From Haliclystus octoradiatus (Eukaryota > Cnidaria > Staurozoa > Stauromedusae > Haliclystidae): 64,000 nucleotides of DNA. Made by a program: the position numbers and the translations under genes. The notes below the pieces were generated by a model that saw only the letters and a program-made list of their open reading frames with translations, searched no databases and was not told where the DNA came from. The stretch is taken from assembly GCA_916610825.1 (NCBI GenBank), contig OU744446.1:20841223-20905222 (forward strand). Direction: 5' to 3'. This document shows positions 1 through 64,000 of the stretch, piece after piece (position 1 is the first letter of the stretch; every line of letters starts with the position of its first letter).

Positions 1-609
1 AGCTCAAAATGACAAAAACAATGCTTAATTCCCAAGGGAATTCGAATTTTACAAAAACAGCTCAAAATGACCTAAAACAATGCTTAATTCCCAAGGGAAT
101 TCGAATTTTTCAAAAATAGCTCAAAATGACCTAAAACAATGCTTAATTCCCAAGGGAATTCGAATTTTACAAGAACAGCTCAAAATGACCTAAAACAATG
201 CTTAATTCACAAGGGAATTTGAACTTTTCAAAAACAGCTCAAAATGACCTTAAACAATGCTTAATACCCAAGGGAATTCGAATTTTTCAAAAACAGCTCA
301 AAATGACCTAAAACAATGCTTAATTCCCAAGGGAAGTCAAATTTTTCAAAAACAGCTCAAAATGACCTAAAACAATGCTTAATTCCCAAGGGAATTCGAA
401 TTTTACAAAAACAGCTCAAAATGACCTAAAACAATGCTTAATTCCCAAGGGAATTCGAATTTTTCAAAAACAGCTCAAAATAACCTAAAACAATGCTTAA
501 TTCCCAAGGAAATTCGAATTTTTCAAAAACAGCTCAAAATAACCTAAAACAATGCTTAATTCCCAAGGGAATTCGAATTTTTCAAAACCAGCTCAAAATG
601 ACCTAAAAC
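1..609 (+). repeat. Mixed monomers at the left edge; no gene
   Basis: About ten monomers with loosely ordered variants: a gaactttt-type monomer near 220, an ataccc monomer near 265, and two ataacc monomers near 480 and 540. No 649-bp or 1,121-bp period can be recognised. The run is cut by the window edge, so its larger unit cannot be judged. Confidence 0.8.
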
Positions 610-1551
610 AATGCTTAATTCCCAAGGGAATTCGAATTTTTCAAAAACAGTTCAAAATGACCTAAAACAATGCTTAATTCCTAAGGGAATTCGAATTTTA
701 CAAAAACAGCTCAAAATGACCTAAAACAATGCTTAATTCACAAGGGAATTCGAACTTTTCAAAAACAGCTCAAAATGACCTTAAACAATGCTTAATTCCC
801 AAGGGAATTCGAATTTTTCAAAAACAGCTCAAAAAGACCTAAAACAATGCTTAAATCCCAAGGGAATTCGAATTTTACAAAAACAGCTCAAAATGACCTA
901 AACCAATGCTTAATTCCCAAGGGAATTTGAATTTTTCAAAATAGATCAAATTGACCAAAAACAATGCCCAGTTCCCAAGGGAATTCGAATTTTACAAAAA
1001 CAGCTCAAAATGACCTAAAACAATGCTTAATTCCCAAGGGAATTCGAATTTTTCAAAAACAGCTCAAAATGACCTAGAACAATGCTTAATTCCCAAGGGA
1101 ATTCGAATTTTACAAAAACAGTTCAAAATGACCTAAAACAATGCTTAATGCCTAAGGGAATTCGAATTTTACAAAAACAGCTCAAAATGACCTAAAACAA
1201 TGCTTAATTCACAAGGGAATTCGAACTTTTCAAAAACAGCTCAAAATGACCTTAAACAATGCTTAATTCCCAAGGGAATTCGAATTTTTCAAAAACAGCT
1301 CAAAAAGACCTAAAACAATGCTTAAATCCCAAGGGAATTCGAATTTTACAAAAACAGCTCAAAATGACCTAAAACAATGCTTAATTCCCAAGGGAATTTG
1401 AATTTTTCAAAATAGATGAAATTGACCAAAAACAATGCCCAGTTCCCAAGGGAATTCGAATTTTACAAAAACAGCTCAAAATGACCTAAAACAATGCTTA
1501 ATTCCCAAGGGAATTCGAATTTTTCAAAAACAGCTCAAAATGACCTAGAAC
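610..1551 (+). repeat. 471-bp tandem duplication (8 monomers)
   Basis: Two adjacent eight-monomer units share private changes exactly 471 bp apart: a cagttc variant (649 and 1120), aaaaagacc (831 and 1302), ttaaatccc (851 and 1322), an atagat variant of the cagctc region (941 and 1412) and cctagaac (1073 and 1544). The length is 8 x 59 minus 1, because the atagat monomer has lost one base. Exact ends are uncertain by about one monomer. Confidence 0.85.
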
Positions 1552-2144
1552 AATGCTTAATTCCCAAGGGAATTCGAATTTTACAAAAACAGCCCAAAAT
1601 GACTTAAAACAATGCTTAATTCCCAAGGGAATTCGAATTTTACAAAAACAGCTCAAAATGACCTTAAACAATGCTTAATTCCCAAGGGAGTTCGAATTTT
1701 TCAAAAACAGCTTAAAATGACCTGAAACAATGCTTAATTCCCAAGGGAATTAGAATTTTTCAAAAACAGCTCAAAATGACCTGAAACAATGCTTAATTCC
1801 CAAGGGAATTGGAATTATTCAAAAACAGCTCAAAATGACCTAAAACAATGCTTAATTCCCAAGGGAATTCGGATTTTTCAAAAACAGCTCAAAATGACCT
1901 AAAACAATGCTTAATTCCCAAGGGAATTCGAATTTTTCAAAAACAGCTCAAAATGACCTAAAACAATGCTTAATTCCCAAGGGAATTCGAATTTTAAAAA
2001 ACAGCTTAAACCGATCAAAAACAATGCCTAATTCCCAAGAGAATTCGAATTTTACAAAATCAGCTCAAAATGACAAAAACAATGCTTAATTTCCAAGGGA
2101 ATTCGAATTTCAGAAAAACAGCTTAAAATGACTAAAAACAATGC

Positions 2145-2183
2145 TTTGTACCCTTGGGTATGAAAAATGAGAAAAAACAATGC
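2145..2183 (+). repeat. D unit 1 (39 bp, A type)
   Basis: D begins tttgtaccc, has the inverted repeat TACCC-TT-GGGTA, and ends caatgc like a normal monomer. It aligns to the 59-bp monomer with about 20 bp removed from the middle (the AATTCGAATT and cagctc parts). A-type copies follow a tttcag monomer and precede a cccaaagg monomer. Confidence 0.93.
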
Positions 2184-2947
2184 TTAATTCCCAAAGGAAT
2201 TCAAATTTTTCAAAAACAGCTCAAAATGACCTAAAACAATGCTTAATTCCCAAGGGAATTCGAATTATTCAAAAACTGCTCAAAATGACCTAAAACAATG
2301 CTTAATTCCCAAGGGAATTCGAATTTTTCAAAAACAGCTCAAAATGACCTAAAACAATGCTTGATTCCCAAGGGAATTCGAATTTTACAAAAACAGCTCA
2401 AAATGACCTTAAACAATGCTTAATTCCCAAGGGAGTTCTAATTTTACAAAAACAGCTTAAACGGATCAAAAACAATGCCTAATTCCCAAGAGAATTCGAA
2501 TTTTACAAAATCAGCTCAAAATGACAAAAACAATGCTTAATTCCCAAGGAAATTCGAATTTTTCAAAAACAGCTCAAAATAACCTGAAACAATGCTTAAT
2601 TCCCAAGGGAATTCGAATTATTCAAAAACAGCTCAAAATGACCTAAAACAATGCTTAATTCCCAGGGGAATTCGGATTTTTCAAAAACAGCTCAAAATGA
2701 CCTAAAACAATGCTTAATTCCCAAGGGAATTCGAATTTTTCAAAAACAGCTCAAAATGACCTAAAACAATGCTTAATTCCCAAGGGAATTCGAATTTTAA
2801 AAAACAGCTTAAACGGATCAAAAACAATGCCTAATTCCCAAGAGAATTCGAATTTTACAAAATCAGCTCAAAATGACAAAAACAATGCTTAATTTCCAAG
2901 GGAATTCGAATTTCAGAAAAACAGCTTAAAATGACTAAAAACAATAC

Positions 2948-2986
2948 TTTGTACCCTTGGGTTTGAAAAATGAGAAAAAACAATGC
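2948..2986 (+). repeat. D unit 2 (A type)
   Basis: The only D copy with gggtttg instead of gggtatg, which breaks the outer pair of its inverted repeat. It is preceded by aatac, not aatgc. Confidence 0.93.
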
Positions 2987-3633
2987 TTAATTCCCAAAGG
3001 AATTCAAATTTTTCAAAAACAGCTCAAAATGACCTAAAACAATGCTTAATTCCCAAGGGAATTCGAATTTTTCAAAAACAGCTCAAAATGACCTAAAACA
3101 ATGCTTAATTCCCAAGGGAATTTGAATTTTTAAAAAACAGCTCAAAATGACCAAAAACAATGCCCAGTTCACAAGGGAATTCGAATTTTACAAAAACAGC
3201 TCAAAATGACCTTAAACAATGCTTAATTCCCAAGGGAGTTCGAATTTTTCAAAAACAGCTCAAAATGACCTGAAACAATGCTTAATTCCCAAGGGAATTC
3301 GAATTATTCAAAAACAGCTCAAAATGACCTAAAACAATGCTTAATTCCCAAGGGAATTCGGATTTTTCAAAAACAGCTCAAAATGACCTAAAACAATGCT
3401 TAATTCCCAAGGGAATTCGAATTTTTCAAAAACAGCTCAAAATGACCTAAAACAATGCTTAATTCCCAAGGGAATTCGAATTTCGAAAAACAGCTTAAAC
3501 TGATCAAAAACAATGCCTAATTCCCAAGAGAATTCGAATTTTACAAAATCAGCTCAAAATGACAAAAACAATGCTTAATTTCCAAGGGAATTCGAATTTC
3601 AGAAAAACAGCTTAAAATGACTAAAAACAATGC

Positions 3634-3672
3634 TTTGTACCCTTGGGTATGAAAAATGAGAAAAAACAATGC
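3634..3672 (+). repeat. D unit 3 (A type)
   Basis: Standard A-type D, 686 bp after D 2. Its counterpart in the second macro-copy, near 16390, has been deleted. Confidence 0.93.
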
Positions 3673-4960
3673 TTAATTCCCAAAGGAATTCAAATTTTTC
3701 AAAAACAGCCCAAAATGACCTAAAAAAATGCTTAATTCCCAAGGGAATTCGAATTTTTCAAAAACAGCTCAAAATGACCTAAAACAATGCTTAATTCCCA
3801 AGGGAATTTGAATTTTAAAAAACAGCTCAAAATGACCAAAAACAATGCCCAGTTCACAAGGGAATTCGAATTTTACAAAAACAGCTCAAAATGACCTAAA
3901 ACAATGCTTAATTCCCAAGGGAATTCGAATTTTTCAAAAACAGCTCAAAATGACCTAAAACAATGCTTGATTCCCAAGGGAATTCGAATTTTACAAAAAC
4001 AGCTCAAAATGACTTAAAACAATACTTAATTGCCAAGGGAATTAGAATTTTACAAAATCAGCTCAAAATGACAAAAACAATGCTTAATTCCCAAGGGAAT
4101 TCGAATTTTACAAAAACAGCTCAAAATGACCTAAAACAATGCTTAATTCCCAAGGAAATTCGAATTTTTCAAAAACAGCTCAAAATGACCTAAAACAATG
4201 CTTAATTCCCAAGGGAATTTGAATTTTTCAAAAACAGCTCAAAATGACCTAAAACAATGCTTAATTCCCAAGGGAATTCGAATTTTTCTAAAACAGCTCA
4301 AAATTACCTAAAACAATGCTTAATTCCCAAGGGAATTTGAATTTTCCAAAAACAGCTCAAAATGACCAAAAACAATGCCCAGTTTCCAAGGGAATTCGAA
4401 TTTAAAAAAAACAGCTCAAAATGACCTAAAACAATGCTTAATTCCCAAGGGAATTCGAATTTTTTAAAAACAGCTCAAAATGACTTAAAACAATGCTTAA
4501 TTGCCAAGGGAATTCGAATTTTACAAAATCAGCTCAAAATGACAAAAACAATGCTTAATTCCCAAGGGAATTCGAATTTTACAAAAACAGCTCAAAATGA
4601 CCTAAAACAATGCTTAATTCCCAAGGGAATTCGAATTTTTCAAAAACAGCTCAAAATGACCTAGAACAATGTTTAATTCCCAAGGGAATTTGAATTTTTC
4701 AAAAACAGCTCAAAATGACCTAAAATAATGCTTAATTCCCAAGGGAATTCGAATTTTACAAAAACAGCTCAAAATGACTTAAAACAATGCTTAATTCCCA
4801 AGGGAATTCGAATTTTACAAAATCAGCTCAAAATGACAAAAACAATGCTTAATTCCCAAGGGAATTCTAATTTTACAAAAACAGCTCAAAATTACCTAAA
4901 ACAATGCTTAATTCCCAAGGGAATTCGAATTTTTCAAAAACAGCTCAAAATGACCTAAAA
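3673..4960 (+). repeat. Module X, copy 1 (shortened)
   Basis: Module X is recognised by ttgccaag monomers, tctaaaacag, tttaaaaaaaacag, 58-bp units with gacaaaaac, and an aataatgc end. This copy aligns with 12091-13637 at offset 8419 up to about 4660 and at 8655 after it, so it lacks 236 bp, exactly four monomers. The missing monomers include the second tctaaaacag and the cccaatgg monomers of fuller copies. Confidence 0.85.
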
Positions 4961-6263
4961 CAATGCTTAATTCCCAAGGGAATTCGAATTTTACAAAAAC
5001 AGCTCAAAATGACCTAAAACAATGCTCAATTCACAAGGGAATTCGAATTTTTCAAAAACAGCTCAAAATGACCTAAAACAATGCTTAATTCCCAAGGGAA
5101 TTCGAATTTTACAAAAACAGCTCAAAATGACCTAAAACAATGCTTAATTCCCAAGGGAATTCGAATTTTTCAAAAACAGCTCAAAATGACCTAAAACAAT
5201 GCTTAATTCCCAAGGGAATTTGAATTTTTCAAAAACAGCTCAAAATGACCAAAAACAATGCCCAGTTCCCAAGGGAATTCGAATTTCACAAAAACAGCAT
5301 AAAATGACCTAAAACAATGCTTAATTCCCAAGGGAATTCGAATTTTACAAAATCAGCTCAAAATTACCTAAAACAATGCTTAATTCCCAAGGGAATTCGA
5401 ATTTTTCAAAAACAGCTCAAAATGACCTACAACAATGCTTAATTCCCAAGGGAATTCGAATTTTACAAAAACAGCTCAAAATGACCTAAAACAATGCTTA
5501 ATTCACAAGGGAATTCTAACTTTTCAAAAACAGCTCAAAATGACCTTAAACAATGCTTAATACCCAAGGGAATTCGAATTTATCAAAAACAGCTCAAAAT
5601 GACCTAAAACAATTCTTAATTCCCAAGGGAATTCGAATTTTTCAAAAACAGCTCAAAATGACCTAAAACAATGCTTAATTCCCAAGGGAATTTGAATTTT
5701 TCAAAAACAGCTCAAAATGACCAAAAACAATGCCCAGTTCCCAAGGGAATTCGAATTTCACAAAAACAGCATAAAATGACCTAAAACAATGCTTAATTCC
5801 CAAGGGAATTCGAATTTTACAAAAACATCTCAAAATGCCCTAAAACAATGCTTAATTCCCAAGGGAATTCGAATTTTTCAAAAACAGCTCAAAATGACCT
5901 AAAACAATGCTTAATACCCAAGGGAATTCGAATTTTTCAAAAACAGCTCAAAATGACCTAAAACAATGCTTAATTCCCAAGGGAATTCGAATTTTTCAAA
6001 CCAGCTCAAAATGACCTCAAACAATGCTTAATTCCCAAGAAGATTCGAATTTTTCAAAAACAGCTCAAAATGACCTAAAACAATGCTTAATTCCCAAGGG
6101 AATTCGAATTTTACAAAAACAGCTCAAAATGACCTAAAACAATGCTTAATTCCCAAGGGAATTCGAATTTTTCAAAAACAGCTCAAAATGACCTAAAACA
6201 ATGCTTAATTCCTAAGGGAATTCGAAATTTACAAAAACAGCTCAAAATGACCTAAAACAATGC
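4961..6263 (+). repeat. E/F-type block embedded among A-type sequence
   Basis: This stretch carries markers typical of the right half of the window: ctcaattcacaag near 5027, a gaactttt-like monomer near 5511, the acatctc...atgccc monomer at 5825, the caagaagattcg monomer near 6040 and the cctaaggg/gaaattt monomer near 6224. It pairs with 16.86-17.7 kb at offset 11773, checked at 5281/17054, 5511/17284 and 5825/17598. Confidence 0.8.
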
Positions 6264-7127
6264 TTAGTTCCCAAGGGAATTCGAATTTTTCAAAAACAGC
6301 TCAAAATAACCTAAAACAATGCTTAATTCCCAAGGGAATTCGAATTTTTCAAAAACAGCTCAAAAGGACCTAAAACAATGCTTAATTCCCAAGGGAATTT
6401 GAATTTTTCAAAAACAGCTCAAAATGACCTAAAACAATGCTTAATTCCCAAGGGAATTCGGATTTTACAAAAACAGCTCAAAATGACCTAAAACAATGCT
6501 TAATTCACAAGGGAATTCGAACTTTTCAAAAACAGCTCAAAATGACCTTAAACAATGCTTAATTCTCAAGGGAATTCGAATTTTTGAAAAACAGCTCAAA
6601 ATTACCTAAAACAATGCTTAATTCCCAAGGGAATTCGAATTTTACAAAAACAGCTCAAAATGACCTAAAACAATGCTTAATTCCCAAGCGAATTCGAATT
6701 TTTCAAAAACAGCTCAAAATGACCTGAAACAATGCTTAATTCCAAAGGGAATTCGAATTTTTCAAAAACAGCTCAAAATGACCTAAAACAATGCTTAATT
6801 CCAAAGGGAATTCGAATTTTTCAAAAACAGCTCAAAATGACCTAAAACAATGCTTAATTCCCAAGGGAATTCGAATTTTTCAAAAACAGCTCAAAATGAC
6901 CTAAAACAATGCTTAATTCCCAAGGGAATTCGAATTTTACAAAAACAGCTTAAACCGATCATAAACAATGCCTAATTCCCAAGAGAATTCGAATTTTACA
7001 AAATAAGCTCAAAATGACAAAAACAATGCTTAATTCCCAAGGGAATTCGAATTTCACAAAAACAGCTTAAAATGACTAAAAACAATGCTTTGTACCCTTG
7101 GGTATGAAAAATGAGAAAAAACAATTC
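6264..7127 (+). repeat. C-D cassette, full form (14 monomers plus D)
   Basis: The order is ataacc, aaggacc, tttgaa, cggattttac, gaactttt/cttaaac, ttctcaag with tttttgaaaaac and attacc, an aattttac monomer, a monomer ending cctgaaac (here with caagcg), two ccaaag monomers, a common monomer, ttaaaccgatcataaac, a 58-bp caagag monomer, ttaaaatgactaaaaac, then D at 7089. The first 14 monomers total 825 bp. The same order and length are found at 25582, 26623 and 29021. The first monomer here has ttagttccc. Confidence 0.85.
7089..7127 (+). repeat. D unit 4 (B type)
   Basis: B-type copies follow a tttcac/ttaaaatgactaaaaac monomer and end caattc instead of caatgc. This one closes the C cassette at 6264. 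Confidence 0.93.
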
Positions 7128-7245
7128 TTAATTCCCAAGGGAATTCGAATTTTTCAAAAACAGCTCAAAATGACCTAAACCAATGCTTAATTCCCAAGGG
7201 AATTCGAATTTTTCAAAAACAGCTCAAAATGACCTAAAACAATGC

Positions 7246-7304
7246 TTAATTCCCAAGGGAATTCGAATTTTTCAAAAACAGCTCAAAATGACCTAAAACA
7301 ATGC
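7246..7304 (+). repeat. Reference 59-bp monomer
   Basis: This copy matches the most frequent base at every position and is used for numbering. Position 1 is the first T of ttaattccc and position 59 the C of caatgc. Positions 3-18 form an imperfect palindrome, 15-24 a perfect one, 23-33 a T5-C-A5 tract. EcoRI (GAATTC) lies at 14-19, BstBI (TTCGAA) at 17-22, AluI (AGCT) at 35-38, and the only CpG at 19-20. Variation concentrates at positions 10-11, 16-20, 25-29, 34-39 and 44-51. Confidence 0.97.
7248..7269. repeat. Nested dyads inside the monomer (representative copy)
   Basis: Two symmetric elements share one AATT: 7-bp arms AATTCCC and GGGAATT separated by AA (7248-7263), and the perfect 10-bp palindrome AATTCGAATT (7260-7269). 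The order is AATT, CCCAAGGG, AATT, CG, AATT. It recurs about once per 59 bp, so the array could extrude regularly spaced small cruciforms or bind a dyad-recognising protein. Symmetry is seen in the sequence; function is inference. Confidence 0.85.
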
Positions 7305-8128
7305 TTAATTCCCAAGGGAATTCGAATTTTTCAAAAACAGCTTAAAATGACCTAAAACAATGCTTAATTCCCAAGGGAATTCGAATTTTTCAAAAACAGC
7401 TCAAAATGACCTGAAACAATGCTTAATTCCCAAGGGAATTCGAATTATTCAAAAACAGCTCAAAATGACCAAAAACAATGCTTAATTCCCAAGGGAATTC
7501 GGATTTTTCAAAAACAGCTCAAAATGACCTAAAACAATGCTTAATTCCCAAGGGAATTCGAATTTTTCAAAAACAGTTCAAAATGACCTAAAACAATGCT
7601 TAATTCCCAAGGGAATTCGAATTTTTCAAAAACAGCTCAAAATGACCTTAAACAATGCTTAATTCCCAAGGGAGTTCGAATTTTTCAAAAACAGCTTAAA
7701 ATGACCTAAAACAATGCTTAATTCCCAAGGGAATTCGAATTTTTCAAAAACAGCTCAAAATGACCTGAAACAATGCTTAATTCCCAAGGGAATTCGAATT
7801 ATTCAAAAACAGCTCAAAATGACCTAAAACAATGCTTAATTCCCAAGGGAATTCGGATTTTTCAAAAACAGCTCAAAATGACCTAAAACAATGCTTAATT
7901 CCCAAGGGAATTCGAATTTTTCAAAAACAGATCAAAATGACCTAAAACAATGCTTAATTCCCAAGGGAATTCGAATTTTAAAAAACAGCTTAAACCGATC
8001 AAAAACAATGCCTAATTCCCAAGAGAATTCGAATTTTACAAAATCAGCCCAAAATGACAAAAACAATGCTTAATTTCCAAGGGAATTCGAATTTTAGAAA
8101 AACAGCTTAAAATGACTAAAAACAATAC

Positions 8129-8167
8129 TTTGTACCCTTGGGTATGAAAAATGAGAAAAAACAATGC
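8129..8167 (+). repeat. D unit 5 (A type)
   Basis: Preceded by aatac and by a tttag monomer, a pair of marks shared with D 11307 and D 19550. Confidence 0.93.
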
Positions 8168-8873
8168 TTAATTCCCAAAGGAATTCAAATTTTTCAAAAA
8201 CAGCTCAAAATGACCTAAAACAATGCTTAATTCCCAAGGGAATTCGAATTTTTCAAAAACAGCTCAAAATGACCTAAAACAATGCTTAATTCCCAAGGGA
8301 ATTTGAATTTTTAAAAAACAGCTCAAAATGACCAAAAACAATGCCCAGTTCACAAGGGAATTCGAATTTTACAAAAACAGCTCAAAATGACCTTAAACAA
8401 TGCTTAATTCCCAAGGGAGTTCGAATTTTTGAAAAACAGCTCAAAATGACCTAAAACAATGCTTAATTCCCAAGGGAATTCGAATTTTTCAAAAACAGCT
8501 CAAAATGACCTGAAACAATGCTTAATTCCCAAGGGAATTCGAATTATTCAAAAACAGCTCAAAATGACCTAAAACAATGCTTAATTCCCAAGGGAATTCG
8601 GATTTTTCAAAAACAGCTCAAAATGACCTAAAACAATGCTTAATTCCCAAGGGAATTCGAATTTTTAAAAAACAGCTCAAAATGACCTAAAACAATGCTT
8701 AATTCCCAAGGGAATTCGAATTTTGAAAAACAGCTTAAACTGATCAAAAACAATGCCTAATTCCCAAGAGAATTCGAATTTTACAAAATCAGCTCAAAAT
8801 GACAAAAACAATGCTTAATTTCCAAGGGAATTCGAATTTCAGAAAAACAGCTTAAAATGACTAAAAACAATGC

Positions 8874-8912
8874 TTTGTACCCTTGGGTATGAAAAATGAG
8901 AAAAAACAATGC
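8874..8912 (+). repeat. D unit 6 (A type)
   Basis: 745 bp after D 8129 and repeated by the 1040-bp duplication at 9914. Module X follows. Confidence 0.93.
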
Positions 8913-9913
8913 TTAATTCCCAAAGGAATTCAAATTTTTCAAAAACAGCTCAAAATGACCTAAAACAATGCTTAATTCCCAAGGGAATTCGAATTTTTCA
9001 AAAACAGCTCAAAATGACCTAAAACAATGATTAATTCCCAAGGGAATTTGAATTTTTAAAAAACAGCTCAAAATGACCAAAAACAATGCCCAGTTCACAA
9101 GGGAATTCGAATTTTACAAAAACAGCTCAAAATGACCTAAAACAATGCTTAATTCCCAAGGGAATTCGAATTTTTCAAAAACAGCTCAAAATGACCTAAA
9201 ACAATGCTTGATTCCCAAGGGAATTCGAATTTTACAAAAACAGCTCAAAATGACTTAAAACAATGCTTAATTGCCAATGGAATTAGAATTTTACAAAATC
9301 AGCTCAAAATGACAAAAACAATGCTTAATTCCCAAGGGAATTCGAATTTTACAAAAACAGCTCAAAATGACCTAAAACAATGCTTAATTCCCAAGGAAAT
9401 TCGAATTTTTCAAAAACAGCTCAAAATGACCTAAAACAATGCTTAATTCCCAAGGGAATTCGAATTTTTCAAAAACAGCTTAAAATGACCTAAAACAATG
9501 CTTAATTCCCAAGGGAATTCGAATTTTTCAAAAACAGCTCAAAATGACCTGAAACAATGCTTAATTCCCAAGGGAATTCGAATTATTCAAAAACAGCTCA
9601 AAATGACCAAAAACAATGCTTAATTCCCAAGGGAATTCGGATTTTTCAAAAACAGCTCAAAATGACCTAAAACAATGCTTAATTCCCAAGGGAATTCGAA
9701 TTTTTCAAAAACAGCTCAAAATGACCTAAAACAATGCTTAATTCCCAAGGGAATTCGAATTTTTCAAAAACAGCTCAAAATGACCTAAAACAATGATTAA
9801 TTCCCAAGAGAATTCGAATTTTACAAAATCAGCTCAAAATGACAAAAACAATGCTTAATTTCCAAGGGAATTCGAATTTCAGAAAAACAGCTTAAAATGA
9901 CTAAAAACAATGC

Positions 9914-43113: not shown

Positions 43114-43172
43114 TTAATTCCCAAGGGAATTCGAATTTTTCAAAAACAGCTCAAAATGACCTAAAACAATGC

Positions 43173-52119: not shown

Positions 52120-54656
52120 TTAATTCCTAAGGGAATTCGAATTTTACAAAAACAGCTCAAAATGACCTAAAACAATGCTTAATTCCCAAGGGAATTCGAA
52201 TTTTTCAAAAACAGCTCAAAATAACCTAAAACAATGCTTAATTCCCAAGGGAATTCGAATTTTTCAAAAACAGCTCAAAATGACCTAAAACAATGCTTAA
52301 TTCCCAAGGGAATTTGAATTTTTCAAAACCAGCTCAAAATCACCAAAAACAATGCCCAGTTCCCAAGGGAATTCGAATTTCACAAAAACAGCATAAAATG
52401 ACATAAAACAATGCTTAATTCCCAAGGGAATTCGAATTTTACAAAAACATCTCAAAATGCCCTAAAACAATGCTTAATTCCCAAGGGAATTCGAATTTTT
52501 CAAAAACAGCTCAAAATGACCTAAAACAATGCTTAATACCCAAGGGAATTCGAATTTTTCAAAAACAGCTCGAAATGACCTAAAACAATGCTTAATTCCC
52601 AAGGGAATTCGAATTTTTCAAAACCAGCTCAAAATGACCTCAAACAATGCTTAATTCCCAAGAAGATTCGAATTTTTCAAAAACAGCTCAAAATGACCTA
52701 AAACAATGCTTAGTTCCCAAGGGAATTCGAATTTTACAAAAACAGCTCAAAATGACCTAAAACAATGCTTAATTCCCAAGGGAATTCGAATTTTTCAAAA
52801 ACAGCTCAAAATGACCTAAAACAATGCTTAATTCCTAAGGGAATTCGAAATTTACAAAAACAGCTCAAAATGACCTAAAACAATTCTTAATTCCCAAGGG
52901 AATTCGAATTTTTCAAAAACAGCTCAAAATGACCTAAAACAATGCTTAATTCCCAAGGGAATTTGAATTTTTCAAAAACAGCTCAAAATGACCAAAAACA
53001 ATGCACAGTTCCCAAGGGAATTCGAATTTCACAAAAACAGCATAAAATGACCTAAAACAATGCTTAATTCCCAAGGGAATTCGAATTTTACAAAATCAGC
53101 TCAAAATTACCTAAAACAATGCTTAATTCCCAAGGGAATTCGAATTTTACAAAAACAGCTCAAAATGACCTAAAACAATGCTTAATTCCCAAGGGAATTC
53201 GAATTTTACAAAAACAGCTCAAAATGACCTAAAACAATGCTTAATTCACAAGGGAATTCGAACTTTTCAAAAACAGCTCAAAATGACCTTAAACAATGCT
53301 TAATACCCAAGGGAATTCGAATTTATCAAAAACAGCTCAAAATGACCTAAGACAATTCTTAATTCCCAAGGGAATTCGAATTTTTCAAAAACAGCTCAAA
53401 ATGACCTAAAACAATGCTTAATTCCCAAGGGAATTTGAATTTTTCAAAAACAGCTCAAAATGACCAAAAACAATGCCCAGTTCCCAAGGGAATTCGATTT
53501 TCACAAAAACAGCATAAAATGACATAAAACAATGCTTAATTCCCAAGGGAATTCGAATTTTACAAAAACATCTCAAAATGCCCTAAAACGATGCTTAATT
53601 CCCAAGGGAATTCGAATTTTTCAAAAACAGCTCAAAATGACCTAAAACAATGCTTAATACCCAAGGGAATTCGAATTTTTCAAAAACAGCTCGAAATGAC
53701 CTAAAACAATGCTTAATTCCCAAGGGATTTCGAATTTTTCAAAACCAGCTCAAAATGACCTCAAACAATGCTTAATTCCCAAGAAGATTCGAATTTTTCA
53801 AAAACAGCTCAAAATGACCTAAAACAATGCTTAATTCCCAAGGGAATTCGAATTTTACAAAAACAGCTCAAAATGACCTAAAACAATGCTTAATTCCCAA
53901 GGGAATTCGAATTTTTCAAAAACAGCTCAAAATGACCTAAAACAATGATTAATTCCTAAGGGAATTCGAAATTTACAAAAACAGCTCAAAATGACCTAAA
54001 ACAATTCTTAATTCCCAAGGGAATTCGAATTTTTCAAAAACAGCTCAAAATGACCTAAAACAATGCTTAATTCCCAAGGGAATTTGAATTTTTCAAAAAC
54101 AGCTCAAAATGACCAAAAACAATGCCCAGTTCCCAAGGGAATTCGAATTTCACAAAAACAGCATAAAATGACATAAAACAATGCTTAATTCCCAAGGGAA
54201 TTCGAATTTTACAAAAACTTCTCAAAATGCCCTAAAACAATGCTTAATTCCCAAGGGAATTCGAATTTTTCAAAAACAGCTCAAAATGACCTAAAACAAT
54301 GCTTAATACCCAAGGGAATTCGAATTTTTCAAAAACAGCTCAAAATGACCTAAAACAATGCTTAATTCCCAAGGGAATTCGAATTTTTCAAAACCAGCTC
54401 AAAATGACCTCAAACAATGCTTAATTCCCAAGAAGATTCGAATTTTTCAAAAACAGCTCAAAATGACCTAAAACAATGCTTAATTCCCAAGGGAATTCGA
54501 ATTTTACAAAAACAGCTCAAAATGACCTAAAACAATGCTTAATTCCCAAGGGAATTCGAATTTTACAAAAACAGCTCAAAATGACCTAAAACAATGCTTA
54601 ATTCCTAAGGGAATTCGAAATTTACAAAAACAGCTCAAAATGACCTAAAACAATGC
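52120..54656 (+). repeat. 19-mer HOR unit 5 and F unit
   Basis: The monomer at 52120 has cctaag but lost the gaaattt spelling. ataacc and tttgaa/atcacc monomers follow, then caagaag, ttagttccc (52710) and the 19-mer at 52828-53948 and an F unit to 54597. The part from about 52.7 kb is the 6528-bp-offset copy of 46.2-48.1 kb. Private marks are atgcacag near 53003, cctaagac at 53346, aaacgatgc at 53589 and tgattaattcc at 53946. Confidence 0.88.
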
Positions 54657-55343
54657 TTAATTCCCAAGGGAATTCGAATTTTTCAAAAACAGCTCAAAAT
54701 AACCTAAAACAATGCTTAATTCCCAAGGGAATTCGAATTTTTCAAAAACAGCTCAAAAGGACCTAAAACAATGCTTAATTCCCAAGGGAATTTGAATTTT
54801 TCAAAAACAGCTCAAAATGACCTAAAACAATGCTTAATTCCCAAGGGAATTCGGATTTTACAAAAACAGCTCAAAATGACCTAAAACAATGCTTAATTCA
54901 CAAGGGAATTCGAACTTTTCAAAAACAGCTCAAAATGACCTTAAACAATGCTTAATTCCAAAGGGAATTCGAATTTTTCAAAAACAGCTCAAAATGACCT
55001 AAAACAATGCTTAATTCCAAAGGGAATTCGAATTTTTCAAAAACAGCTCAAAATGACCTAAAACAATGCTTAATTCCCAAGGGAATTCGAATTTTTCAAA
55101 AACAGCTCAAAATGACCTAAAACAATGCTTAATTCCCAAGGGAATTCGAATTTTACAAAAACAGCTTAAACCGATCATAAACAATGCATAATTCCCAAGA
55201 GAATTCGAATTTTACAAAATCAGCTCAAAATGACAAAAACAATGCTTAATTCCCAAGGGAATTCGAATTTCACAAAAACAGCTTAAAATGACTAAAAACA
55301 ATGCTTTGTACCCTTGGGTATGAAAAATGAGAAAAAACAATTC
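54657..55343 (+). repeat. C-D cassette, short form
   Basis: Eleven monomers (648 bp) and D 55305. It is at offset 6528 from the cassette at 48129 and 3165 from the one at 57822. Confidence 0.9.
55305..55343 (+). repeat. D unit 22 (B type)
   Basis: Copy of D 48777 at offset 6528. Confidence 0.93.
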
Positions 55344-57113
55344 TTAATTCCCAAGGGAATTCGAATTTTTCAAAAACAGCTCAAAATGACCTAAAACAAT
55401 GCTTAATTCCCAAGGGAATTCGAATTTTTCAAAAACAGCTCAAAATGACCTAAAACAATGCTTAATTCCCAAGGGAATTCGAATTTTTCAAAAACATCTC
55501 AAAATGACCTAAAACAATGCTTAATTCCCAAGGGAATTTGAATTTTTCAAAAAAAGCTCAAAATGACCAAAAACAATGCCCAGTTCCCAAGGGAATTCGA
55601 ATTTTACAAAAACAGCGCAAAATGACCTAAAACAATGCTCAATTCACAAGGGAATTCGAATTTTTCAAAAACAGCTCAAAATGACCTAAAACAATGCTTA
55701 ATTCCCAAGGGAATTCGAATTTTACAAAAACAGCTCAAAATGACCTAAAACAATGCTTAATTCCCAAGGGAATTTGAATTTTTCAAAAACAGCTCAAAAT
55801 GACCAAAAACAATGCCCAATTCCCAAGGGAATTCGAATTTCACAAAAACAGCATAAAATGACCTAAAACAATGCTTAATTCCCAAGGGAATTCGAATTTT
55901 ACAAAATCAGCTCAAAATTACCTAAAACAATGCTTAATTCCCAAGGGAATTCGAATTTTTCAAAAACAGCTCAAAATGACCTAAAACAATGCTTAATTCC
56001 CAAGGGAATTCGAATTTTACAAAAACAGCTCAAAATGACCTAAAACAATGATTAATTCCTAAGGGAATTCGAAATTTACAAAAACAGCTCAAAATGACCT
56101 AAAACAATGCTTAATTCCCAAGGGAATTTGAATTTTTCAAAAACAGCTCAAAATGACCAAAAACAATGCCCAGTTCCCAAGGGAATTCGAATTTCACAAA
56201 AACAGCATAAAATGACCTAAAACAATGCTTAATTCCCAAGGGAATTCGAATTTTACAAAATCAGCTCAAAATTACCTAAAACAATGCTTAATTCCCAAGG
56301 GAATTCGAATTTTTCAAAAACAGCTCAAAATGACCTAAAACAATGCTTAATTCCCAAGGGAATTCGAATTTTACAAAAACAGCTCAAAATGACCTAAAAC
56401 AATGCTTAATTCACAAGGGAATTCGAACTTTTCAAAAACAGCTCAAAATGACCTTAAACAATGCTTAATACCCAAGGGAATTCGAATTTATCAAAAACAG
56501 CTCAAAATGACCTAAGACAATTCTTAATTCCCAAGGGAATTCGAATTTTTCAAAAACAGCTCAAAATGACCTAAAACAATGCTTAATTCCCAAGGGAATT
56601 TGAATTTTTCAAAAACAGCTCAAAATGACCAAAAACAATGCCCAGTTCCCAAGGGAATTCGATTTTCACAAAAACAGCATAAAATGACATAAAACAATGC
56701 TTAATTCCCAAGGGAATTCGAATTTTACAAAAACATCTCAAAATGCCCTAAAACGATGCTTAATTCCCAAGGGAATTCGAATTTTTCAAAAACAGCTCAA
56801 AATGACCTAAAACAATGCTTAATACCCAAGGGAATTCGAATTTTTCAAAAACAGCTCGAAATGACCTAAAACAATGCTTAATTCCCAAGGGATTTCGAAT
56901 TTTTCAAAACCAGCTCAAAATGACCTCAAACAATGCTTAATTCCCAAGAAGATTCGAATTTTTCAAAAACAGCTCAAAATGACCTAAAACAATGCTTAAT
57001 TCCCAAGGGAATTCGAATTTTACAAAAACAGCTCAAAATGACCTAAAACAATGCTTAATTCCCAAGGGAATTCGAATTTTTCAAAAACAGCTCAAAATGA
57101 CCTAAAACAATGA
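55344..57113 (+). repeat. Post-D block and start of the second 3165-bp copy
   Basis: The post-D order is as at 29885, with cccaattccc instead of cccagttccc near 55815. A tgattaattcc monomer at 56049 with the gaaattt marker is the duplication junction, then tttgaa, cccag, aaaatcag/attacc and an E core at 56425. The sequence then follows 53.26-53.95 kb. Confidence 0.83.
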
Positions 57114-57821
57114 TTAATTCCTAAGGGAATTCGAAATTTACAAAAACAGCTCAAAATGACCTAAAACAATTCTTAATTCCCAAGGGAATTCGAATTTTTC
57201 AAAAACAGCTCAAAATGACCTAAAACAATGCTTAATTCCCAAGGGAATTTGAATTTTTCAAAAACAGCTCAAAATGACCAAAAACAATGCCCAGTTCCCA
57301 AGGGAATTCGAATTTCACAAAAACAGCATAAAATGACATAAAACAATGCTTAATTCCCAAGGGAATTCGAATTTTACAAAAACTTCTCAAAATGCCCTAA
57401 AACAATGCTTAATTCCCAAGGGAATTCGAATTTTTCAAAAACAGCTCAAAATGACCTAAAACAATGCTTAATACCCAAGGGAATTCGAATTTTTCAAAAA
57501 CAGCTCAAAATGACCTAAAACAATGCTTAATTCCCAAGGGAATTCGAATTTTTCAAAACCAGCTCAAAATGACCTCAAACAATGCTTAATTCCCAAGAAG
57601 ATTCGAATTTTTCAAAAACAGCTCAAAATGACCTAAAACAATGCTTAATTCCCAAGGGAATTCGAATTTTACAAAAACAGCTCAAAATGACCTAAAACAA
57701 TGCTTAATTCCCAAGGGAATTCGAATTTTTCAAAAACAGCTCAAAATGACCTAAAACAATGCTTAATTCCTAAGGGAATTCGAAATTTACAAAAACAGCT
57801 CAAAATGACCTAAAACAATGC
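57114..57821 (+). repeat. Type F HOR unit
   Basis: Marker cores at 57133 and 57782. It is the 3165-bp-offset copy of the F unit at 53949, which in turn copies 47421 at 6528. Confidence 0.9.
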
Positions 57822-58508
57822 TTAATTCCCAAGGGAATTCGAATTTTTCAAAAACAGCTCAAAATAACCTAAAACAATGCTTAATTCCCAAGGGAATTCG
57901 AATTTTTCAAAAACAGCTCAAAAGGACCTAAAACAATGCTTAATTCCCAAGGGAATTTGAATTTTTCAAAAACAGCTCAAAATGACCTAAAACAATGCTT
58001 AATTCCCAAGGGAATTCGGATTTTACAAAAACAGCTCAAAATGACCTAAAACAATGCTTAATTCACAAGGGAATTCGAACTTTTCAAAAACAGCTCAAAA
58101 TGACCTTAAACAATGCTTAATTCCAAAGGGAATTCGAATTTTTCAAAAACAGCTCAAAATGACCTAAAACAATGCTTAATTCCAAAGGGAATTCGAATTT
58201 TTCAAAAACAGCTCAAAATGACCTAAAACAATGCTTAATTCCCAAGGGAATTCGAATTTTTCAAAAACAGCTCAAAATGACCTAAAACAATGCTTAATTC
58301 CCAAGGGAATTCGAATTTTACAAAAACAGCTTAAACCGATCATAAACAATGCATAATTCCCAAGAGAATTCGAATTTTACAAAATCAGCTCAAAATGACA
58401 AAAACAATGCTTAATTCCCAAGGGAATTCGAATTTCACAAAAACAGCTTAAAATGACTAAAAACAATGCTTTGTACCCTTGGGTATGAAAAATGAGAAAA
58501 AACAATTC
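57822..58508 (+). repeat. C-D cassette, short form
   Basis: Eleven monomers (648 bp) and D 58470, nearly identical to 54657-55343. Confidence 0.9.
58470..58508 (+). repeat. D unit 23 (B type)
   Basis: Copy of D 55305 at offset 3165. Confidence 0.93.
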
Positions 58509-59154
58509 TTAATTCCCAAGGGAATTCGAATTTTCAAAAACAGCTCAAAATGACCTAAAACAATGCTTAATTCCCAAGGGAATTCGAATTTTTCAAAACA
58601 GCTCAAAATGACCTAAAACAATGCTTAATTCCCAAGGGAATTCGAATTTTTCAAAAACATCTCAAAATGACCTAAAACAATGCTTAATTCCCAAGGGAAT
58701 TTGAATTTATCAAAAAAAGCTCAAAATGACCAAAAACAATGCCCAGTTCCCAAGGGAATTCGAATTTTACAAAAACAGCGCAAAATGACCTAAAACAATG
58801 CTCAATTCACAAGGGAATTCGAATTTTTCAAAAACAGCTCAAAATGACCTAAAACAATGCTTAATTCCCAAGGGAATTCGAATTTACAAAAACAGCTCAA
58901 AATGACCTAAAACAATGCTTAATTCCCAAGGGAATTTGAATTTTTCAAAAACAGCTCAAAATGACCAAAAACAATGCCCAATTCCCAAGGGAATTCGAAT
59001 TTCACAAAAACAGCATAAAATGACCTAAAACAATGCTTAATTCCCAAGGGAATTCGAATTTTTCAAAAACAGCTCAAAATGACCTAAAACAATGCTTAAT
59101 TCCCAAGGGAATTCGAATTTTACAAAAACAGCTCGAAATGACCTAAAACAATGC
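58509..59154 (+). repeat. Post-D block with three one-base homopolymer losses
   Basis: The order matches the block after D 48777, including the ttatc/caaaaaaagctc monomer. Compared with it, one T is lost near 58531, one A near 58600 and one T near 58884. These account for the spacing of D 58470 to D 62399 (3929 bp) being three bases short of the expected register. Confidence 0.85.
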
Positions 59155-60570
59155 TTAATTCACAAGGGAATTCGAACTTTTCAAAAACAGCTCAAAATGA
59201 CCTTAAACAATGCTTAATACCCAAGGGAATTCGAATTTATCAAAAACAGCTCAAAATGACCTAAAACAATTCTTAATTCCCAAGGGAATTCGAATTTTTC
59301 AAAAACAGCTCAAAATGACCTAAAACAATGCTTAATTCCCAAGGGAATTTGAATTTTTCAAAAACAGCTCAAAATCACCAAAAACAATGCCCAGTTCCCA
59401 AGGGAATTCGAATTTCACAAAAACAGCATAAAATGACATAAAACAATGCTTAATTCCCAAGGGAATTCGAATTTTACAAAAACATCTCAAAATGCCCTAA
59501 AACAATGCTTAATTCCCAAGGGAATTCGAATTTTTCAAAAACAGCTCAAAATGACCTAAAACAATGCTTAATACCCAAGGGAATTCGAATTTTTCAAAAA
59601 CAGCTCGAAATGACCTAAAACAATGCTTAATTCCCAAGGGAATTCGAATTTTTCAAAACCAGCTCAAAATGACCTCAAACAATGCTTAATTCCCAAGAAG
59701 ATTCGAATTTTTCAAAAACAGCTCAAAATGACCTAAAACAATGCTTAATTCCCAAGGGAATTCGAATTTTACAAAAACAGCTCAAAATGACCTAAAACAA
59801 TGCTTAATTCACAAGGGAATTCGAACTTTTCAAAAACAGCTCAAAATGACCTTAAACAATGCTTAATACCCAAGGGAATTCGAATTTATCAAAAACAGCT
59901 CAAAATGACCTAAAACAATTCTTAATTCCCAAGGGAATTCGAATTTTACAAAAACAGCTCAAAATGACCTAAAACAATGCTTAATTCCCAAGGGAATTCG
60001 AATTTTTCAAAAACAGCTCAAAATGACCTGAAACAATGCTTAATTCCCAAGGGAATTCGAATTTTACAAAAACAGCTCAAAATGACCTAAAACAATGCTT
60101 AATTCCCAAGGGAATTCGAATTTTTCAAAAACAGCTCAAAATGACCTGAAGCAATGCTTAATCCCCAAGGGAATTCGAATTTTTCAAAAACAGCTCAAAA
60201 TGACCTAAAACAATGCTTAATTCCCAAGGGAATTCGAATTTTTCAAAAACAGCTCAAAATGACCTAAAACAATGCTTAATTCCCAAGGGAATTTGAATTT
60301 TTCAAAAACAGCTCAAAATGACCAAAAACAATACCCAGTTCCCAAGGGAATTCGAATTTCACAAAAACAGCATAAAATGACATAAAACAATGCTTAATTC
60401 CCAAGGGAATTCGAATTTTACAAAAACATCTCAAAATGCCCTAAAACAATGCTTAATTCCCAAGGGAATTCGAATTATTCAAAAACAGCTCAAAATGACC
60501 TAAAACAATGCTTAATACCCAAGGGAATTCGAATTTTTCAAAAACAGCTCGAAATGACCTAAAACAATGC
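59155..60570 (+). repeat. Type E HOR, one full unit and one rearranged
   Basis: E cores at 59174 and 59823. After the caattc step near 59920 the second unit switches to aattttac and cctgaaac monomers, with rare spellings gaagcaatgc and aatcccc near 60150, before tttgaa, cccag, acatctc and ataccc monomers resume. The inserted run resembles the middle of a C cassette. Confidence 0.83.
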
Positions 60571-61070
60571 TTAATTCCCAAGGGAATTTGAATTTTTCAA
60601 AAACAGCTCAAAATGACCTAAAACAATGCTTAATTCCCAAGGGAATTCGGATTTTACAAAAACAGCTCAAAATGACCTAAAACAATGCTTAATTCACAAG
60701 GGAATTCGAACTTTTCAAAAACAGCTCAAAATGACCTTAAACAATGCTTAATTCTCAAGGGAATTCGAATTTTTGAAAAACAGCTCAAAATTACCTAAAA
60801 CAATGCTTAATTCCCAAGGGAATTCGAATTTTACAAAAACAGCTCAAAATGACCTAAAACAATGCTTAATTCCCAAGGGAATTCGAATTTTTCAAAAACA
60901 GCTCAAAATGACCTGAAACAATGCTTAATTCCAAAGGGAATTCGAATTTTTCAAAAACAGCTCAAAATGACCTAAAACAATGCTTAATTCCAAAGGGAAT
61001 TCGAATTTTTCAAAAACAGCTCAAAATGACCTAAAACAATGCTTAATTCCCAAGGGAATTCGAATTTTAC
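60571..61070 (+). repeat. C cassette fragment that never reaches D
   Basis: It contains tttgaa, cggattttac, gaactttt at 60708, ttctcaag/tttttgaaaaac/attacc, aattttac, cctgaaac and two ccaaag monomers, as in the 14-monomer C cassette, then jumps near 61030-61090 to an aattttac monomer ending gacat and on to the F marker at 61161. The ttaaaccgatc, caagag and D units are absent. Confidence 0.83.
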
Positions 61071-61750
61071 AAAAACAGCTCAAAATGACATAAAACAATG
61101 CTTAATTCCCAAGGGAATTCGAATTTTTCAAAAACAGCTCAAAATGACCTAAAACAATGCTTAATTCCTAAGGGAATTCGAAATTTACAAAAACAGCTCA
61201 AAATGACCTAAAACAATTCTTAATTCCCAAGGGAATTCGAATTTTTCAAAAACAGCTCAAAATGACCTAAAACAATGCTTAATTCCCAAGGGAATTTGAA
61301 TTTTTCAAAAACAGCTCAAAATGACCAAAAACAATGCCCAGTTCCCAAGGGAATTCGAATTTCACAAAAACAGCATAAAATGACATAAAACAATGCTTAA
61401 TTCCCAAGGGAATTCGAATTTTACAAAAACTTCTCAAAATGCCCTAAAACAATGCTTAATTCCCAAGGGAATTCGAATTTTTCAAAAACAGCTCAAAATG
61501 ACCTAAAACAATGCTTAATACCCCAGGGAATTCGAATTTTTCAAAAACAGCTCAAAATGACCTAAAACAATGCTTAATTCCCAAGGGAATTCGAATTTTT
61601 CAAAACCAGCTCAAAATGACCTCAAACAATGCTTAATTCCCAAGAGGATTCGAATTTTTCAAAAACAGCTCAAAATGACCTAAAACAATGCTTAATTCCC
61701 AAGGGAATTCGAATTTTACAAAAACAGCTCAAAATGACCTAAAACAATGC
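61071..61750 (+). repeat. Type F HOR unit
   Basis: Marker core at 61180, with acttctc near 61429, an ataccccag spelling near 61519 and caagaggattcg instead of caagaagattcg near 61640. The second marker monomer expected before a C cassette is missing; the unit passes from aattttac directly to ataacc. Confidence 0.83.
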
Positions 61751-62437
61751 TTAATTCCCAAGGGAATTCGAATTTTTCAAAAACAGCTCAAAATAACCTA
61801 AAACAATGCTTAATTCCCAAGGGAATTCGAATTTTTCAAAAACAGCTCAAAAGGACCTAAAACAATGCTTAATTCCCAAGGGAATTTGAATTTTTCAAAA
61901 ACAGCTCAAAATGACCTAAAACAATGCTTAATTCCCAAGGGAATTCGGATTTTACAAAAACAGCTCAAAATGACCTAAAACAATGCTTAATTCACAAGGG
62001 AATTCGAACTTTTCAAAAACAGCTCAAAATGACCTTAAACAATGCTTAATTCCAAAGGGAATTCGAATTTTTCAAAAACAGCTCAAAATGACCTAAAACA
62101 ATGCTTAATTCCAAAGGGAATTCGAATTTTTCAAAAACAGCTCAAAATGACCTAAAACAATGCTTAATTCCCAAGGGAATTCGAATTTTTCAAAAACAGC
62201 TCAAAATGACCTAAAACAATGCTTAATTCCCAAGGGAATTCGAATTTTACAAAAACAGCTTAAACCGATCATAAACAATGCATAATTCCCAAGAGAATTT
62301 GAATTTTACAAAATCAGCTCAAAATGACAAAAACAATGCTTAATTCCCAAGGGAATTCGAATTTCACAAAAACAGCTTAAAATGACTAAAAACAATGCTT
62401 TGTACCCTTGGGTATGAAAAATGAGAAAAAACAATTC
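61751..62437 (+). repeat. C-D cassette, short form
   Basis: Eleven monomers (648 bp) and D 62399. The 58-bp caagag monomer here has gaatttg in place of gaattcg near 62298, a C-to-T change at its CpG. Confidence 0.9.
62399..62437 (+). repeat. D unit 24 (B type)
   Basis: 3929 bp after D 58470; the last D in the window. Confidence 0.93.
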
Positions 62438-63145
62438 TTAATTCCCAAGGGAATTCGAATTTTTCAAAAACAGCTCAAAATGACCTAAAACAATGCTTAA
62501 TTCCCAAGGGAATTCGAATTTTTCAAAAACAGCTCAAAATGACCTAAAACAATGCTTAATTCCCAAGGGAATTCGAATTTTTGAAAAACATCTCAAAATG
62601 ACCTAAAACAATGCTTAATTCCCAAGGGAATTTGAATTTATCAAAAAAAGCTCAAAATGACCAAAAACAATGCCCAGTTCCCAAGGGAATTCGAATTTTA
62701 CAAAAACAGCGCAAAATGACCTAAAACAATGCTCAATTCCCAAGGGAATTCGAATTTTTCAAAAACAGCTCAAAATGACCTAAAACAATGCTTAATTCCC
62801 AAGGGAATTCGAATTTTACAAAAACAGCTCAAAATGACCTAAAACAATGCTTAATTCCCAAGGGAATTTGAATTTTTCAAAAACAGCTCAAAATGACCAA
62901 AAACAATGCCCAGTTCCCAAGGGAATTCGAATTTCACAAAAACAGCATAAAATGACCTAAAACAATGCTTAATTCCCAAGGGAATTCGAATTTTACAAAA
63001 TCAGCTCAAAATTACCTAAAACAATGCTTAATTCCCAAGGGAATTCGAATTTTTCAAAAACAGCTCAAAATGACCTAAAACAATGCTTAATTCCCAAGGG
63101 AATTCGAATTTTACAAAAACAGCTCAAAATGACCTAAAACAATGC
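62438..63145 (+). repeat. Post-D block
   Basis: Same order as at 48816, with the ttatc/caaaaaaagctc monomer near 62636. The ctcaattc monomer reads ctcaattcccaag here, not ctcaattcacaag. It ends with attacc, common and aattttac monomers before an E unit. Confidence 0.85.
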
Positions 63146-64000
63146 TTAATTCACAAGGGAGTTCGAACTTTTCAAAAACAGCTCAAAATGACCTTAAACA
63201 ATGCTTAATACCCAAGGGAATTCGAATTTATCAAAAACAGCTCAAAATGACCTAAAACAATTCTTAATTCCCAAGGGAATTCGAATTTTTCAAAAACAGC
63301 TCAAAATGACCTAAAACAATGCTTAATTCCCAAGGGAATTTGAATTTTTCAAAAACAGCTCAAAATCACCAAAAACAATGCCCAGTTCCCAAGGGAATTC
63401 GAATTTCACAAAAACAGCATAAAATGACATAAAACAATGCTTAATTCCCAAGGGAATTCGAATTTTACAAAAACATCTCAAAATGCCCTAAAACAATGCT
63501 TAATTCCCAAGGGAATTCGAATTTTTCAAAAACAGCTCAAAATGACCTAAAACAATGCTTAATACCCAAGGGAATTCGAATTTTTCAAAAACAGCTCGAA
63601 ATGACCTAAAACAATGCTTAATTCCCAAGGGAATTCGAATTTTTCAAAACCAGCTCAAAATGACCTCAAACAATGCTTAATTCCCAAGAAGATTCGAATT
63701 TTTCAAAAACAGCTCAAAATGACCTAAAACAATGCTTAATTCCCAAGGGAATTCGAATTTTACAAAAACAGCTCAAAATGACCTAAAACAATGCTTAATT
63801 CACAAGGGAATTCGAACTTTTCAAAAACAGCTCAAAATGACCTTAAACAATGCTTAATACCCAAGGGAATTCGAATTTATCAAAAACAGCTCAAAATGAC
63901 CTAAAACAATTCTTAATTCCCAAGGGAATTCGAATTTTTCAAAACAGCTCAAAATGACCTAAAACAATGCTTAATTCACAAGGGAATTCGAACTTTTCAA
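63146..64000 (+). repeat. Type E HOR unit and shortened second unit at the window end
   Basis: E cores lie at 63165, 63814 and 63990. The first spacing is 649 bp; the second is only 176 (three monomers minus one base), so eight monomers are missing and one A is lost near 63945. The first gaactttt monomer has gagttcg. The window ends inside the third E monomer. Confidence 0.85.

What the first reader, a model, noticed from the sequence alone, without database searches (positions are those of the whole stretch)
1..64000. Satellite with at least four nested repeat scales
The 59-bp monomer is ordered into 649-bp (11-mer, two types) and 1,121-bp (19-mer) HORs, C-D cassettes, and segmental duplications from 0.5 to about 8 kb, with a macro-period near 12 kb on the left. 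Spacings agree to the base with sums of 59, 58 and 39. HORs are well known for 171-bp alpha satellite in primates; this complexity on a 59-bp monomer is worth describing. Period values are read from the sequence; the mechanism (unequal exchange, conversion) is inference.
Basis: seen in the sequence. Interest (0 to 1): 0.75.

Follow-up and report, generated by a model that had tools for sequence, protein, structure and literature searches.

The report
Short-monomer satellite with nested repeats
This is a stretch of satellite DNA made only of a 59-base unit in which blocks of many units have been copied again and again; the layering is real, but it is the usual way such arrays evolve, seen here on an unusually short unit.

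Summary
The 64-kb window is wholly one head-to-tail 59-bp satellite: 1,094 units, 199 distinct sequences. Four corrections. (1) The 649-bp HOR belongs to about 22-64 kb; 1 of 29 canonical copies lies to the left, and the longest tandem run is 5 copies. (2) 1,121 bp is an 11-mer plus an 8-mer, never reaches two full copies, and seven lags from 30 to 196 are about as strong. (3) The '12-kb macro-period' is one two-copy, gapped duplication. (4) The 59+39 cassette is the same 20-bp deletion in 24 copies. Units 1-4 apart are identical less often than chance, and 7 of 31 divergent private units are exact in-phase hybrids (control mean 0.4). Both fit homology-guided unequal exchange of blocks. HORs on short monomers (VicTR-B, 38 bp) and cascading HORs are in print, so this is a new member of a known kind. 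Host, chromosomal position and function could not be determined.

The parts
1..64000 (+). Uninterrupted head-to-tail array of a 59-bp satellite, 1,094 units, 199 distinct sequences; no other DNA seen
   Evidence: consensus 16-mers 34,339 on + against 1 on -
1..21733 (+). Left domain: cassette-rich mosaic without 11-mer periodicity (lag-11 identity 1.4%); units more diverse (mean pairwise identity 0.888, 129 distinct of 374)
21734..64000 (+). Right domain carrying the 649-bp HOR (lag-11 identity 21.6%; mean pairwise identity 0.917, 115 distinct of 719)
22135..25379 (+). Longest tandem run of the 11-mer: five copies at exact 649-bp spacing, grading from BFK type to BAL type
   Evidence: unit starts 22135, 22784, 23433, 24082, 24731; at no more than 1 difference per unit it splits into runs of 3.09 and 2.55 copies
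39726..41082 (+). 11-mer run, 2.09 copies
41731..43088 (+). 11-mer run, 2.09 copies
33988..36111 (+). 19-mer (11-mer + 8-mer, 1,121 bp), 1.89 copies
45508..47631 (+). 19-mer (1,121 bp), 1.89 copies
50207..52212 (+). 19-mer (1,121 bp), 1.79 copies
2120..2217 (+). First of 24 copies of the 98-bp cassette (59+39): one unit fused to the next by a 20-bp deletion. Cassettes start at 2120, 2923, 3609, 7064, 8104, 8849, 9889, 11282, 12027, 14303, 15048, 15911, 18484, 19525, 20211, 26382, 27423, 29821, 36996, 37801, 48752, 55280, 58445 (97 bp), 62374
   Evidence: 6 distinct sequences among 24 copies
1473..9476 (+).
   Evidence: 99.0% over 115 aligned units, 6 gaps
13656..20838 (+). Right copy of that duplication
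45709..49522 (+). Longest ungapped duplication, 3,814 bp, 99.6% to 52237-56050
52921..58835 (+). 54-unit macro-repeat (about 3.17 kb), 1.87 copies, each holding one cassette

Best explanation
A eukaryotic-type satellite array whose layers are the trace of repeated, in-phase, homology-guided unequal exchange (sister-chromatid crossover or out-of-register break-induced replication) that duplicated or deleted blocks of many units rather than single units. Shown: one 59-bp unit in near-fixed phase, the same few indels recurring inside copied blocks, identity peaks at 11 units and at many longer spacings, a deficit of identity between units 1-4 apart, hybrid units. Inferred: that those indels arose once each, that sequence similarity chose the exchange partners, and that the process is neutral. 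An 11-unit block became the commonest exchange register in the right two-thirds; an 8-unit derivative beside it gives the 19- and 30-unit spacings. The left third has been reshuffled mainly by duplications of about 0.7-8 kb. No function is needed to explain the order; any centromeric or heterochromatic role is untested.
For: Lag 11 z 24; lags 1-4 depleted (z -3.7 to -4.6, 0 of 2,000 shuffles as low at any of the four). Same-position identity between 11-mers 0.989 against 0.918 between positions within one. 96% of the window lies in blocks of at least 400 bp and 98% identity that recur in it. The cassette junction is the same in 24 of 24 copies; 57 of 64 58-bp units carry one of two deletions (44 at position 15, 13 at position 53). 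Of 31 private units two or more changes from every type with at least 3 copies, 7 are exact two-part hybrids; 30 control sets gave mean 0.4, maximum 3. Of 70 one change away, 38 are; control mean 26.9, maximum 34. Simulations roughly matched for number of distinct units: tandem exchange blind to homology gave the observed lag 1-4 deficit together with a short-lag peak as high as observed in 0 of 60 runs, homology-guided exchange in 39 of 100. Dispersed copying gave the short-lag peak in 0 of 42 runs.
Against: The homology-guided runs do not fit in full: their longest exact block repeat is 64 units or more in 100 of 100 runs, against 24 observed. Blind exchange with mean blocks of 10 fits that one statistic better (median 25) but fails on lags 1-4. 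Only 15 of 308 high-identity pairs (at least 649 bp, 99%) are tandem-like in length/offset, and the median offset of pairs of at least 649 bp is 12 kb, so later rearrangement or dispersed copying must have contributed. 24 of the 31 divergent private units are not exact hybrids. Crossover, conversion and BIR cannot be told apart from one haplotype. Misassembly cannot be excluded without reads.
Confidence: 0.8

Rival explanations
1. Dispersed copying (gene conversion, template switching or reinsertion of circular copies) rather than tandem unequal exchange made most of the block duplications.
For: Most close pairs are far apart: median offset about 12 kb among pairs of at least 649 bp, and 15 of 308 pairs tandem-like. 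Satellite-derived circles in HOR-sized steps are reported in plants (PMC2543021, passages).
Against: Pure dispersed copying gave no short-lag peak (maximum 0.084 against 0.146 observed, 42 runs). Five 11-mers stand in exact tandem.
Confidence: 0.3
2. The array is a functional centromere satellite and the order of unit types is kept by selection (for example spacing of a protein-binding unit every 11).
For: Over 191 distinct units six columns never vary (7, 8, 22, 43, 49, 55) while column 52 varies in 44.5%. The HOR arrays in the review passages seen are centromeric (PMC8997354).
Against: No genome is held and there are no chromatin or map data. Strict 11-unit spacing is kept only in short runs. 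The dyad AATTCCCAAGGGAATT does not make the unit fold better than shuffles (z 0.10 and -0.80 for the two strands). Column counts are not corrected for shared ancestry.
Confidence: 0.12
3. The larger layers are assembly artefacts (duplicated or mis-joined near-identical reads).
For: Blocks up to 3.8 kb at 99.6%; no reads could be checked.
Against: Copies differ by scattered substitutions and indels and keep the 59-bp phase. The 11-mer and cassette layers are short enough to lie within single long reads (inference).
Confidence: 0.07

Closest known systems
Alpha-satellite HORs, including mixed and cascading HORs (human chromosomes 8 and 15)
   Same: Divergent units inside a block, near-identical blocks; an 11-mer mixed with shorter derivatives such as 8-mers (PMC8997354, passages); several repeat lags at once (PMC11050224, passages)
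   Different: 59 bp against 171 bp; units 8% apart within a block against 20-40%; at most 5 tandem copies in this window against, for example, 429 copies
VicTR-B subfamily VG-V of Vicia grandiflora (38-bp units in a 186-bp pentamer HOR)
   Same: HOR on a short monomer; HOR copies more alike (89%) than monomers (78%) (PMC2543021, passages)
   Different: Another unit length and number; longer layers are not described in the passages seen; sequences not compared
CEN178 of Arabidopsis thaliana, HORs counted as pairs of repeated blocks (TRASH)
   Same: HOR defined as any pair of matching blocks rather than a regular tandem array (PMC10199239, passages)
   Different: 178-bp monomer; no sequence comparison made
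FokI repeat of Vicia faba (59 bp)
   Same: Monomer listed as 59 / 57 bp, with A/T strand asymmetry (PMC5895790, passages)
   Different: FokI is listed as 59.3% AT; this array is 68.0% AT and has no FokI site

Membership tests
Satellite DNA array | Long uninterrupted head-to-tail array of one unit | tested here: met
   1,094 units over 64 kb, one strand
Higher-order repeat | Block copies far more alike than the units inside a block | tested here: met
   0.989 against 0.918 for the 11-mer, 29 copies
Higher-order repeat | Block repeated in tandem at least twice | tested here: met
   11-mer: runs of up to 5 copies. Not met for the 19-mer, best 1.89 copies
Higher-order repeat, Willard type | All units within a block of different types | tested here: met
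   the 11 letters of BFKDCHEJING are all different
Higher-order repeat, Willard type | Units within a block 20-40% apart (as given for alpha satellite in PMC11050224) | tested here: not met
   8% apart
Higher-order repeat, Willard type | Long homogeneous tandem array of the same block | tested here: not met
   No run above 5 copies in 64 kb; the array beyond the window was not seen
Cascading / mixed HOR | Same unit type recurring within a larger block, several lag peaks | tested here: met
   Lags 11, 19, 30, 53, 143, 165, 191, 196 in excess; B, C, D and H recur within the 19-mer
Vicia faba FokI repeat | FokI site in the unit | tested here: not met
   0 GGATG and 0 CATCC in 64 kb; that the family is defined by this site is recalled
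Centromeric satellite | Association with CENP-A/CENH3 chromatin | not testable with these tools
   No host genome held, no chromatin data

The most novel reading that the evidence does not exclude
A satellite family not found in the papers searched, in whose arrays exchange at the scale of one to four units has been nearly absent although neighbouring units are about 90% identical, so that similarity at or above HOR scale sets the register even for a 59-bp unit. If it is also the host's centromere satellite, it would be a short-unit counterpart of the mixed-HOR zones of human centromeres.
Probability: 0.15. Interest if true: 0.5.

Novelty: new member of a known kind. Interest (0 to 1): 0.3.

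Why it matters
Short units make the scale of exchange readable: 64 kb holds over a thousand units, so the deficit at lags 1-4 and the peak at 11 can be measured directly. It is a compact test case for models of HOR formation (unequal crossover against break-induced replication) outside the 171-bp alpha satellite.

Tried and rejected
Identifying the host: no genome is held for the window. An exact 34-base core is absent from the viral contigs and an exact 31-base core from the bacterial and archaeal genome contigs. Of seven stretches of 15-22 bases of the unit looked for in the held papers (one, six, both orientations among them), one 16-base stretch occurs once, in a bacterial bioengineering paper (PMC11117859, listing only), taken as chance; the other six were not found. 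Searches for 59-bp satellites listed papers that I did not take further except PMC7859515, where 59 bp is only a median length (passages); the listing includes a 2026 mouse pericentromere paper (PMC13371928) that names a 59-bp satellite 18 times, which I did not open, so a link to it is untested. The Vicia FokI repeat was rejected. These searches cover open-licence papers only. The Tribolium madens paper (PMC13081366, abstract and outline) reports macro-dyad symmetries; here practically no minus-strand unit exists.

Hairpin selection on the central dyad: not supported. The gapped self-alignments chain unrelated blocks over tens of kb; only the pair 1473-9476 / 13656-20838 is used from them, and the gap-size tally is not used. 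(9 settings x 5 seeds) had a crude mutation step and was replaced; tandem blind exchange, 7 mean block sizes x 6 runs, and dispersed copying, 7 x 6 runs; 1 blind and 7 homology-guided settings x 6 runs; the 42 guided runs had 265-697 distinct units against 199, so it was replaced (3 blind and 5 guided settings x 20 runs, distinct units 134-251 and 86-556). All are exploratory, with settings chosen by me. The order-shuffle null ignores relatedness, so the comparison with neighbouring lags is given beside it. Lags 7, 9 and 20 are also low (z -2.5, -2.6, -2.6), though not below half the background like lags 1-4. The 11-mer copies were counted with a pattern I wrote after seeing the type string.
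Full report
What is there. The window is one satellite from end to end. Tandem Repeats Finder reports a 59-bp unit throughout, and a cyclic alignment to its consensus cuts the window into 1,094 units: 978 of 59 bp, 64 of 58, 24 of 44, 23 of 54, three of 60, one of 53 and a last one of 55 cut by the window end. Consensus 16-mers occur 34,339 times on the + strand and once on the - strand. Composition is 68% AT with strong strand asymmetry, A 27,722 against T 15,796. There are 199 distinct unit sequences, 105 of them seen once. No other DNA was seen.

At base level the autocorrelation is a smooth decay with small bumps at 649 (0.678; neighbours 0.678 and 0.652) and 1,121 (0.581; neighbours 0.583 and 0.566). 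At unit level it is clear. Identical units recur at lag 11 in 14.6% of pairs against 2.9% in 2,000 order shuffles (z 24), and at lag 19 in 7.3% (z 8.9). Against neighbouring lags, 11 is first and 19 fourth of 259; by raw identity 19 is seventh of 259. So the finding is not refuted, but lag 19 is not special: 165, 196, 143, 191, 53, 30 and 111 lie between 8.5% and 7.2%.

The 11-mer. With 50 recurrent unit types as letters, which cover 870 of 1,094 units exactly, the 649-bp block reads B[F/A][K/L]DC[H/W]E[J/a]I[N/k/f/A]G. By that pattern there are 29 copies, 21 BFK-type and 8 BAL-type, 28 of them right of 22 kb. Same-position identity between copies is 0.989 (lowest pair 0.974), between positions inside a copy 0.918. 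From the coordinates, 12 of 28 successive spacings are exactly 649, three are 1,121 and one is 1,122. The longest tandem run is five copies (22135-25379). The 1,121-bp repeat is an 11-mer followed by an 8-mer ending C-H-U-P or C-H-U-h; its longest runs are 1.89 copies. Lag-11 identity is 21.6% right of 21,733 and 1.4% left of it; the strongest left lags are 197, 141, 203 and 196.

Cassettes and large duplications. The 59+39 cassette is a 98-bp fusion of two units with a 20-bp deletion: 24 copies, 6 distinct sequences (one of them 97 bp), 15 copies in the left domain and 9 in the right. Two deletions account for 57 of the 64 58-bp units (44 at position 15, 13 at position 53); that each arose once is inference. 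Ungapped duplications reach 3,814 bp at 99.6%. The left 'macro-period' is the pair 1473-9476 and 13656-20838, 99.0% over 115 aligned units with six gaps: two copies, not a period. In all, 96% of the window lies in blocks of at least 400 bp and 98% identity that recur in it, 94.5% on the left and 97.1% on the right.

How it works. Units 1 to 4 apart are identical less often than in shuffles (0.7-1.1% against 2.9%; 0 of 2,000 as low); lags 7, 9 and 20 are low too, less strongly. Mean identity of neighbours (0.905) equals that of random pairs (0.906). Recent copying therefore hardly acted on single units or very short runs. Indels are few and recur inside copied blocks, so the 59-bp phase is kept. 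Among 104 private units examined, 31 lie two or more changes from any type with at least three copies; 7 of these are exact two-part hybrids of such types, against mean 0.4 and maximum 3 in 30 control sets. Of 70 that lie one change away, 38 are, against mean 26.9 and maximum 34. That is what homologous exchange inside units should leave. The other 24 of the 31 are not exact hybrids.

Simulations are exploratory. Dispersed copying never gave a short-lag peak as high as observed (0 of 42 runs). In runs roughly matched for the number of distinct units, tandem exchange blind to homology gave the lag 1-4 deficit and the short-lag peak together in 0 of 60 runs: small blocks give the peak, large ones reduce short-lag identity, none does both. 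Exchange that requires two or four matching units gave both in 39 of 100. The guided runs miss one statistic in 100 of 100: their longest exact repeat is 64 units or more, against 24. I read this as qualitative support for homology-guided block exchange. It does not separate crossover from break-induced replication, and the rarity of tandem-like pairs (15 of 308) leaves room for dispersed copying.

Against what is known. HORs made by joint amplification of unit blocks, with unequal exchange and break-induced replication as competing models, are standard (PMC8122249, PMC8997354, PMC11034957; passages). In human centromere 8, 4-, 7- and 8-mers are mixed with the 11-mer they derive from (PMC8997354). 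Chromosome 15 shows cascading HORs with several lags (PMC11050224, passages). HORs on a short monomer are described for VicTR-B, 38 bp in a 186-bp pentamer (PMC2543021, passages). The Vicia faba FokI repeat shares the 59-bp length but neither the AT content (59.3%) nor the FokI site. Of seven stretches of the unit searched in the held open-licence papers, one 16-base stretch gave one chance hit; exact cores are absent from the viral and prokaryote collections. One listed paper naming a 59-bp satellite (PMC13371928) was not opened. I file this as a new member of a known kind, with a short unit and a mixed, low-copy HOR state.

Limits. Host, chromosomal place and function are unknown; that it is eukaryotic is inferred from its nature. 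One haplotype and no reads: misassembly of long near-identical blocks cannot be excluded. Column conservation is not corrected for shared ancestry and is not used as evidence of function.

Noticed in passing
24 cassettes, first at 2120-2217: The cassette carries TACCCTTGGGTA where the consensus has TTCCCAAGGGAA: the two central bases are TT for AA and the flanking T/A pair is changed on both sides, as if the small dyad had been flipped.
   Followed up: partly
1-64000: EcoRI (GAATTC) occurs 887 times and AluI (AGCT) 944 times in 1,094 units, so EcoRI digestion should give a 59-bp ladder.
   Followed up: no
1-64000, unit columns: Over 191 distinct units six columns (7, 8, 22, 43, 49, 55) never vary while column 52 (T or A) varies in 44.5%; not corrected for shared ancestry.
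   Followed up: partly
1-21733 against 21734-64000: Left-domain units are more diverse than the right (mean pairwise identity 0.888 against 0.917) and carry 15 of 24 cassettes, which suggests an older or less homogenised flank.
   Followed up: partly
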